Shown here: one piece after another, positions 614 through 12,822 of the stretch | Layout of the letters: every line of letters begins with the position of its first letter | How positions within the stretch are numbered: position 1 is the stretch's first letter | Assembly: GCA_947630505.1 (NCBI GenBank) | Contig: CANRHV010000004.1 | Coordinates: 1-64,000, forward strand | Origin: an uncultured Monoglobus sp. | Lineage (GTDB): Bacteria; Bacillota; Clostridia; Monoglobales; Monoglobaceae | DNA length: 64,000 nt | Direction of reading: 5' to 3' | Notes under the pieces: model-generated | Databases searched by the model: none | What the model saw: the letters and a program-made list of their open reading frames with translations, nothing else | What the model was told of the DNA's origin: nothing | Translations under genes and position numbers: made by a program

Positions 614-628
614 AAGTATACTATAATA

Positions 629-900
629 AATGCGTTTGAGCGGAAACAAGTAGATGCGTGAAAGTCTTGAGAGAGTTGCCGGGAGCTGCGAGGCAATGAC
701 GGAAGCGTTTTCGAATACATTCCGCGAGCAGTGCACCGAAAGGGTTTGAGCCGTCCGAGTAGGCTGCAACGGGAGTTCCCGTCACAGAACATGGGTATTG
801 ATGATACCTTCTGAGGCCGCGGCCGTGAGACAGCGGTGAATTGAGGTGGTACCACGGGTGAAGCTCGTCCTCTGTTTAAAAATAGAGAGCGGGTTTTTTG
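629..900 (+). ncRNA. T-box riboswitch, specifier read as UAC (Tyr)
   Basis: Stem I base pairs GCGGAA (about 640) with TTCCGC (about 712). The 5' side carries the loop-E AGTA and the AGAGAG bulge, and the 3' side reads GAA-TAC-A, so the specifier codon is UAC (tyrosine) followed by the usual A. The antiterminator T-box sequence AGGTGGTACCACGGG is at 845-859. The terminator is CTCGTCCTCT..AGAGAGCGGG followed by TTTTTT (864-899). Uncharged tRNA-Tyr is expected to stabilise the antiterminator and allow transcription of the downstream symporter. The class is certain from motif order; the amino acid is inferred by hand alignment. Confidence 0.88.
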
Positions 901-12359: not shown

Positions 12360-12405
12360 TAAATATAATGTTCCGAATGCCCATGTTGTGTAACAGATTT
12401 TTAAC

Positions 12406-12434
12406 TTGAAAAAATTGTAAAATGGTGGTATTAT
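12406..12434 (+). promoter_or_regulatory. Promoter of the small-peptide mRNA
   Basis: TTGAAA (12406-12411), 17 bases, TATTAT (12429-12434). Start expected near 12441, giving a leader of about 165 bases. Confidence 0.75.
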
Positions 12435-12440
12435 ATTTGT

Positions 12441-12600
12441 GGCAGTAAAACTGCAAGTGCGGAATATTTCGTGCGGAGAAACACTCCTGCGTAAATAAAA
12501 TATGCCGAAGTAAAAGCAGAGATAAAGACGTAAGGACGGTTGGCCGCTTCATTCCTTTCTAAACACTTACATCGTGTTTAAGACATAAAGAAAGGAGTGA
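12441..12600 (+). promoter_or_regulatory. Structured leader that sequesters the ribosome site
   Basis: The last part of the leader forms a 12-bp stem: 12549-12560 (TCATTCCTTTCT) with 12589-12600 (AGAAAGGAGTGA), one G-U pair, fully enclosing the AAAGGAG ribosome site at 12591-12597. Its loop contains a second stem, AAACAC (12561-12566) with GTGTTT (12574-12579). Earlier bases contain smaller hairpins (GGAGaaacaCTCC). I do not recognise a known riboswitch class. Confidence 0.7.
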
Positions 12601-12607
12601 TGCCGTG

Positions 12608-12691
12608 ATGAAAAAATATTTTTTCAGAGTTTTAGTTGCATTGCTTGTAATAATCGTAATTTTTGCGATTTTTGCGCAGTCTGTGCAATAA
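12608..12691 (+). CDS. 27-residue hydrophobic membrane peptide, candidate type I toxin
   Basis: Short ORF of 27 codons starting MKKYFFR and continuing with an uninterrupted hydrophobic segment (VLVALLVIIVIFAIFA) and a polar tail QSVQ. An in-frame GTG at 12605 could also start it. AAAGGAG at 12591-12597 is well spaced but buried in a stem. It has its own promoter upstream and a bidirectional terminator directly after the stop. A perfect minus-strand promoter faces it. Size, charge pattern (basic start, one membrane helix) and convergent antisense RNA match type I toxins such as the Fst/TxpA class. There is no recognisable sequence homologue; toxicity is inference. Confidence 0.6.
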   Translation: MKKYFFRVLVALLVIIVIFAIFAQSVQ

Positions 12692-12787
12692 AAAACAACC
12701 GATCCTAAGTTTGGACGCCAAGGATCGGTTTGTTAATTAAACTTTCCTGAAGCGACTGACCGTTTTTACGCTCTGCCGTTTCTCTTT
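12690..12787 (-). ncRNA. Candidate antisense RNA facing the small peptide
   Basis: A transcript of about 98 bases is expected from the minus-strand promoter at 12794-12822 to the T-run at 12690-12695. It overlaps the 3' end of the peptide mRNA by about 45 bases including the terminator and touches the stop codon. Its 5' part (complement of about 12747-12775) closely resembles the plus-strand leader at about 12526-12552, so an imperfect inverted repeat flanks the ORF. The RNA itself is inferred from the promoter-terminator pair. Confidence 0.6.
12695..12740. terminator. Bidirectional terminator shared by peptide mRNA and antisense RNA
   Basis: AACCGATCCT..AGGATCGGTT hairpin (about 12697-12730). 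Read on the plus strand it is followed by TTGTTAATT. Read on the minus strand it is followed by GTTTTTTATT, a good T-run. Confidence 0.85.
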
Positions 12788-12793
12788 TATATA

Positions 12794-12822
12794 ATTATAT
12801 ATGATTATTATACTTTTGTCAA
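12794..12822 (-). promoter_or_regulatory. Consensus sigma-A promoter of the antisense RNA
   Basis: On the minus strand TTGACA (12822-12817), exactly 17 bases, TATAAT (12799-12794). Both hexamers are perfect consensus and no gene other than the small-peptide locus lies downstream. Confidence 0.85.

What the first reader, a model, noticed from the sequence alone, without database searches (positions are those of the whole stretch)
12406..12822. Candidate type I toxin-antitoxin locus replacing rplS
A 27-residue peptide (basic start, one membrane helix) has its own sigma-A promoter. Its ribosome site is locked in a 12-bp stem, and a bidirectional terminator follows directly after the stop. A perfect-consensus promoter on the opposite strand (TTGACA, 17 bases, TATAAT) fires toward it and would give an RNA of about 98 bases ending in the same terminator. 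Convergent toxin and antisense transcripts sharing a terminator are the plan of Fst/TxpA-type systems. I recognise no homologue, so it may be a new family.
Basis: partly seen in the sequence, partly recalled or inferred. Interest (0 to 1): 0.85.

Follow-up and report, generated by a model that had tools for sequence, protein, structure and literature searches.

The report
Multi-copy peptide toxin with antisense RNA
This stretch is one of at least 18 related copies, in one gut bacterium's genome, of a small gene pair that most likely makes a membrane-damaging peptide together with an RNA that keeps it switched off; the peptide family appears new, and its RNA layout follows an inverted-repeat rule that I could also find in a well-studied Bacillus pair and in many other bacteria.

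Summary
In detail: a 27-aa hydrophobic ORF (12608-12691) with its own promoter, a locked ribosome site, and a perfect-consensus promoter firing back at it. The locus is not single. Ten full copies (75-84% identical) plus about eight members of related subtypes sit in this genome, and 58 copies in twelve genomes of the genus. Evolution fits toxin and antitoxin: the peptide is under purifying selection (dN/dS 0.39); the minus promoter is a perfect 12/12 in 52 of 54 copies, against about 8/12 for the toxin; nine copies keep only the minus RNA, while no intact toxin lacks it. It is not an Fst system: no direct repeats, no PxxxG motif. Instead toxin leader and antitoxin RNA carry the same sequence (inverted repeats in DNA), matched within each element across 15 subtypes (permutation p<1e-4). 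The same holds for 24 Hol_Tox loci and for the proven bsrG/SR4 pair, where that repeat is predicted to fold the toxin mRNA's two ends together. Most likely a new toxin family on a BsrG/SR4-like RNA chassis. 'Replacing rplS' is wrong; the 'bidirectional' terminator has a U-tract only on the minus strand. Expression and toxicity are untested.

The parts
12389..12405 (+). Conserved TGTAA[CT] box and T-rich stretch directly upstream of the toxin -35; shared with other subtypes, possible regulator site
12406..12434 (+). Toxin promoter TTGAAA-17-TATTAT (10/12)
12441..12607 (+). Toxin mRNA leader (start inferred from the promoter)
12476..12551 (+). Leader copy of the mirror motif: GAGAAAC (12476-12482), GCAGAG, and the 23-nt block 12529-12551; same sense as the 5' part of the minus RNA
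12546..12603 (+). SD-locking hairpin; arms 12546-12560 and 12589-12603
12608..12691 (+). Toxin ORF, 27 aa, one membrane helix; dN/dS 0.39 in 47 relatives
12694..12734 (-). Central hairpin; antitoxin terminator with U-tract on the minus strand, weak on the plus strand
12690..12787 (-). Predicted antitoxin RNA of about 98 nt (5' end 12787)
12746..12782 (-). 5' hairpin of the antitoxin RNA with wobble and one double-sided change; contains the antitoxin copy of the mirror motif (12748-12770)
12794..12822 (-). Antitoxin promoter TTGACA-17-TATAAT; perfect in 52 of 54 copies

Best explanation
A chromosomal type I toxin-antitoxin module. The plus strand encodes a 27-aa membrane peptide from a weaker promoter, with the ribosome site locked in a hairpin. 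The minus strand makes an excess of a 98-nt RNA from a perfect promoter. That RNA pairs with the toxin mRNA over at least the central hairpin, and over its whole length if the toxin mRNA reads through that hairpin, so that the mRNA is destroyed (probably by RNase III) instead of being translated. The toxin leader carries the same sequence as the 5' hairpin of the antitoxin RNA; in a toxin mRNA that reads through the element the leader would pair with its own 3' end, a second lock like those of hok, aapA and (predicted here) bsrG mRNA. Shown from sequence: layout, promoter asymmetry, SD locking, coding selection, one-sided loss, matched mirror motif. Inferred: transcription, toxicity, RNase III, read-through, and the function of the mirror motif. 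The confidence given is for the TA identity; the end-to-end lock I put at about 0.45.
For: 47 distinct ORFs without frame breaks, dN/dS 0.39. Minus promoter 12/12 in 52 of 54 copies, plus promoter mean 8.3. SD locked in 74 leaders, median unpaired probability 0.01 versus 0.46 shuffled. Of 58 minus-RNA copies in the genus 49 keep an ORF; nine are orphans; the only two toxin copies without minus RNA are broken or truncated. An orphan minus RNA is identical at 103/103 positions in three species while 42 of 679 flanking positions vary, Fisher p=0.004. G-U wobbles in the hairpin of the minus RNA would be A-C mismatches on the plus strand, so it is the minus strand that folds. Mirror motif matched within each of 15 element types, in 24 Hol_Tox loci and in bsrG/SR4. 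Plus-strand terminators at the far right end in 12 of 13 copies of types III and IV imply toxin transcripts across the whole unit there.
Against: No transcript, no toxicity and no repression has been measured. In the window's own class there is neither a plus-strand U-tract at the central hairpin nor a terminator at the right end, so the 3' end of the toxin mRNA is unknown. If the toxin mRNA stops at the central hairpin, the two RNAs overlap only there and the end-to-end lock cannot form. The orphans represent about four events, not nine. Within class I the small variations of the two mirror copies are not visibly coupled.
Confidence: 0.85

Rival explanations
1. The locus is a small regulatory or signalling membrane peptide (not a toxin) controlled by an antisense RNA.
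For: Toxicity is not shown; small membrane peptides with other roles exist (general knowledge). The peptide is conserved.
Against: Many variable copies per genome, an antitoxin promoter that is always stronger, one-sided loss and the absence of a fixed neighbour fit a toxin better.
Confidence: 0.08
2. It is a dispersed small repeat (MITE-like); promoters, hairpins and ORF serve only the repeat's own spread.
For: About 440 bp, no transposase, at least ten copies per genome, presence/absence at orthologous sites and opposite orientation behind trmD.
Against: No terminal inverted repeats or target duplications seen; the unit ends at the outer edges of its promoters; the ORF is under selection; orphan minus RNAs are conserved; other subtypes keep the plan with unrelated sequence.
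Confidence: 0.04
3. TA module, but the mirror motif acts differently: the antitoxin hairpin's 5' arm pairs with the toxin leader (arm exchange), blocking a ribosome standby site as IstR-1 does for tisB, or both RNAs bind one common protein.
For: The lowest-energy contact between minus 5' part and toxin mRNA lies at the shared hairpin in most copies. The SD is permanently locked, so a standby site would be needed (tisB precedent PMC4147584).
Against: That contact is no stronger than with shuffled RNA (mean z -0.5). Identity extends to flank and internal-loop bases that arm exchange would not use. Motifs differ between types but match within types, unlike a common protein site.
Confidence: 0.35
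4. The match between the two mirror copies is kept by DNA-level homogenisation of inverted repeats (template switching), without function.
For: Inverted repeats about 200 bp apart can correct each other (general knowledge).
Against: Within class I the two copies keep stable differences over tens of loci (TTGG in the leader, TTTGG or TCAG in the antitoxin), and the hairpin 5' arm differs between copies in several types.
Confidence: 0.08

Closest known systems
bsrG/SR4 (TxpA/BsrG family, Bacillus subtilis prophage SPbeta)
   Same: Convergent RNAs overlapping at the 3' side, locked SD, central hairpin that ends the antitoxin RNA, same-sense mirror motif in toxin leader and antitoxin; the central hairpin loops even share GTTTGGAC-R-CC (PMC4147584).
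   Different: Toxin unrelated by Pfam (no PF16935 match); antitoxin about 98 nt instead of 180 (SR4 length from general knowledge); no separate toxin terminator found in this class; chromosomal multi-copy, not prophage.
Hol_Tox loci (PF16935) of Clostridia and Bacilli
   Same: Same mirror-motif rule in 24 loci tested, convergent strong promoter downstream.
   Different: Peptide family differs; usually one to three copies per genome.
Fst/par (pAD1 RNA I/RNA II)
   Same: Convergent promoters, hairpin terminator between, SD locked by an upstream stem (PMC7472228).
   Different: Fst has direct repeats that make the RNAs complementary and a PxxxG motif; here inverted repeats and no PxxxG.
CD2517.1-RCd8, CD2907.1-RCd9 and relatives (Clostridioides difficile)
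   Same: Convergent, 3'-overlapping type I pairs in Clostridia, many per genome (PMC6563280).
   Different: Toxins of 34-59 aa with a lysine-rich tail, mostly in prophages, described with SigB promoters; none of these here.
Ibs/Sib of Escherichia coli
   Same: Several dispersed intergenic copies of a tiny hydrophobic toxin with an antisense RNA (general knowledge).
   Different: Sib RNA covers the toxin gene; here the overlap is on the 3' side only.

Membership tests
Type I toxin-antitoxin (general) | Small hydrophobic peptide encoded by a conserved ORF | tested here: met
   27 aa, dN/dS 0.39, 47 distinct ORFs
Type I toxin-antitoxin (general) | RNA antitoxin encoded on the opposite strand, able to pair with the toxin mRNA | tested here: met
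   Promoter, structure and terminator conserved; predicted duplex gain -47 kcal/mol or more; by prediction only
Type I toxin-antitoxin (general) | Toxicity of the peptide and neutralisation by the RNA | not testable with these tools
   Needs expression assays
Fst/par | Convergent promoters with a hairpin terminator between them | tested here: met
Fst/par | Terminator active in both directions | tested here: inconclusive
   U-tract on the minus strand only
Fst/par | Direct repeats DRa/DRb giving complementarity between toxin leader and antitoxin | tested here: not met
   Complementary match no better within than between elements (6.6 vs 6.4, p=0.22); an fst locus scores on it
Fst/par | PxxxG motif and charged C-terminal tail in the toxin | tested here: not met
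   No PxxxG and no charged tail in 47 sequences, which end mostly in VQ
TxpA/BsrG (Hol_Tox, PF16935) | Toxin matches PF16935 | tested here: not met
   L116 from another genus does match, as a positive control
TxpA/BsrG (Hol_Tox, PF16935) | Convergent RNAs overlapping on the 3' side, locked SD, antitoxin terminator behind the toxin stop codon | tested here: met
   compared with bsrG
TxpA/BsrG (Hol_Tox, PF16935) | Same-sense mirror motif in toxin leader and antitoxin (feature found here, not a published criterion) | tested here: met
Rfam families | Match above the gathering score | tested here: not met

The most novel reading that the evidence does not exclude
Convergent type I toxin-antitoxin pairs of Firmicutes, including BsrG/SR4 and Hol_Tox loci as well as several peptide families not yet named, share one undescribed design rule: the 5' part of the antitoxin RNA is a same-sense copy of the toxin mRNA's leader. 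The antitoxin's target in the mRNA is then the very segment that the leader uses to lock the mRNA end to end, and the two co-evolve as lock and key.
Probability: 0.45. Interest if true: 0.75.

Novelty: new member of a known kind. Interest (0 to 1): 0.58.

Why it matters
It adds a family of very small toxins, with several subtypes, that no library searched here names and that gene callers tend to miss, expanded to ten or more copies per genome in a gut genus for which I found no report of type I systems. The orphan antitoxins are natural cases of antitoxin retention after toxin loss. The mirror-motif rule gives a sequence signature that separates BsrG-like from Fst-like pairs, could find unknown pairs without toxin homology, and makes the question of how these toxin mRNAs stay silent before the antitoxin acts directly testable.

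Tried and rejected
Rfam at gathering and loose thresholds: only chance matches at the locus. Pfam and NCBIfam: no family for the peptides of these classes. Fst-type direct repeats: not found. Replacement of rplS: rejected. Prophage or plasmid origin: no match in phages, plasmids or viral contigs. An immobile locus fixed beside trmD: rejected by presence/absence among relatives. A plus-strand terminator at the right end of class I: 1 of 45 copies, not in the window. A palindromic operator GTAAC-N6-GTTAC at the toxin promoter: only in a minority of copies.

Full report
WHAT IS THERE. Both predicted RNAs fold better than dinucleotide shuffles (z -5.2 and -4.2). Rfam has no family for it. Two points of the finding do not hold. 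The central hairpin has a clear U-tract only for the minus RNA. And rplS is not replaced: it sits on another contig, and most relatives have nothing between trmD and the next gene.

IT IS A REPEATED MODULE. A search of the window's own genome returned nine further full copies of the 440-bp unit at 75-84% identity, one truncated copy, and hits that share only the toxin promoter region. Those last ones turned out to be related modules with other peptides (L012-L015). With the genome holds about 18 modules. In the genus, a covariance model of the minus RNA (R1, built from 41 copies) finds 58 strong hits over the twelve genomes, two strong hits in a sister genus and one weaker hit in another member of that sister genus. 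An exact 20-mer of the minus RNA occurs in 52 stretches of the genome collection, all from Monoglobus or unnamed Clostridia assemblies of one series of samples (isolate names 'Lapin'). No match was found in viral contigs, phages or plasmids.

WHY TOXIN AND ANTITOXIN. Five signs agree. (1) The ORF is under coding selection: 47 distinct ORFs without frame breaks, dN/dS 0.39; that set was chosen for intact ORFs, but 49 of the 58 hits chosen by the minus RNA also keep one. (2) The promoters differ as expected: the minus promoter is a perfect 12/12 in 52 of 54 copies, the plus promoter averages 8.3. (3) The SD is locked: median unpaired probability 0.01 in 74 leaders, 0.46 after shuffling the upstream part. 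(4) Loss is one-sided: nine copies keep the minus RNA without a toxin, while the only two toxin copies without the minus RNA are broken or truncated. (5) Orphans are kept: in one orthologous trio the minus RNA is identical at 103 of 103 positions while 42 of 679 flanking positions vary (Fisher p=0.004). The nine orphans represent about four events, so sign 4 is suggestive rather than strong.

GAIN AND LOSS. Behind trmD the window's species has this element; two relatives have a different subtype in the opposite orientation; six have none, and a seventh has a different gene there. No terminal inverted repeats or target duplications were seen; the ends of the unit are the outer edges of the two promoters. 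How copies spread is open.

THE MIRROR MOTIF. The leader of the toxin mRNA and the 5' part of the minus RNA carry the same sequence in the same sense, that is, inverted repeats in the DNA (12529-12551 and 12748-12770, plus smaller blocks). This is the opposite of Fst, where direct repeats make the two RNAs complementary (PMC7472228). I tested it over 15 element types with different peptides and motifs: each leader matches its own antitoxin RNA (mean 13.7) better than those of others (7.5), permutation p<1e-4; the complementary match shows nothing (6.6 against 6.4, p=0.22). The same test gave the same answer on nine Hol_Tox loci from other Clostridia (14.7 against 8.3) and on 15 from the phylum (10.3 against 8.1), both p<1e-4. 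Of two controls with known biology, bsrG/SR4 has the mirror motif (13.0, shuffle maximum 9.0), and an fst locus does not: it scores 10.0 for its direct repeats and 6.5-7.0 for the same-sense match. In that AT-rich fst locus the shuffle maximum was 13.5, so the fst score alone is weak; the repeats are however plain to the eye and published. The bsrG mRNA is predicted to fold end to end through this very motif. Some element types share ancestry, so the permutation p-values overstate independence.

WHAT THE MOTIF PROBABLY DOES. A motif that differs between element types but is matched within each type points to base pairing rather than to a shared protein. The complement of the minus RNA's copy lies in the toxin mRNA's 3' end, if that mRNA crosses the central hairpin. 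Then the leader can pair with the 3' end, as is known for hok and aapA mRNAs (PMC6733600). In element types III and IV, 12 of 13 copies have a plus-strand terminator at the far right end, its loop holding the antitoxin's -35 box, which suggests that toxin transcripts cross the whole unit there (3 of 279 shuffled ends pass the same test). In the window's own class no such terminator exists and the central hairpin lacks a plus-strand U-tract, so the end of its toxin mRNA is unknown. Matches at internal-loop and flank bases favour end-to-end pairing over simple pairing of hairpin arms, but I do not put this above one half. The antitoxin's duplex with the toxin mRNA is strong in either case (gain of 47 or 104 kcal/mol), and RNase III decay or tighter SD locking is the usual outcome in related systems (PMC4147584).

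PLACE AMONG KNOWN SYSTEMS. It works like bsrG/SR4: convergent RNAs, locked SD, antitoxin terminator in the centre, mirror motif. By the toxin it is not a member of that family (no PF16935 match). It fails two defining features of Fst. It is best called a new toxin family of the type I kind, on a chassis shared with TxpA/BsrG systems. I found no paper that describes type I systems in Monoglobus or the mirror rule, within an open-access library that lacks much of the field, including the main bsrG structure paper.

LIMITS. Everything is from sequence. Copy counts in draft assemblies are lower bounds. The invariance of the minus motif in alignment A1 is partly by selection, since many of its loci were fetched by an exact 20-mer; the ten copies of the window's genome, found by BLAST of the whole region, show it without that bias. 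The Hol_Tox loci were kept only where a downstream minus promoter of at least 10/12 was found.

Noticed in passing
L117 and L212 (G008:C1, about 2362200-2363400): Tandem array of about five convergent elements encoding MEYVYIIIFMIVFITLIESIKK or near relatives in a single-contig genome of the genus; same mirror-motif plan, no Pfam match.
   Followed up: partly
L013, L015, L223, L237 and other type III/IV elements, right ends: A plus-strand terminator and the antitoxin -35 box occupy the same bases (loop TTTTGTCAA), with compensatory stem changes between subtypes.
   Followed up: partly
window 12389-12405 and homologues: Invariant TGTAA[CT] box 12 bases upstream of the toxin -35, shared between subtypes; in a minority it extends to the palindrome GTAAC-N6-GTTAC. 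Possible site of a common regulator.
   Followed up: partly
window 12710-12719 and L299 (bsrG central hairpin): The central hairpin loops of the window element and of bsrG/SR4 share GTTTGGAC-R-CC; could be a recognition loop or coincidence.
   Followed up: no
L054, L057, L069, L076, L083, L089, L090, L102: Class I elements whose leader is interrupted after ...GGACGG by an unrelated insert of about 150 bases (GCTAACATAGCGAATAG...GATAAGCGGCGC), keeping toxin and antitoxin.
   Followed up: no
L080, L085, L094, upstream of the orphan antitoxin: Highly conserved 100-nt stretch (GAGGTGGAGGATTACGTCCGGTCC...GGGACGCCTGCCAAACAG) in three species, RNA-like, not identified.
   Followed up: no
window 626-875: T-box leader, above its Rfam gathering score.
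   Followed up: no
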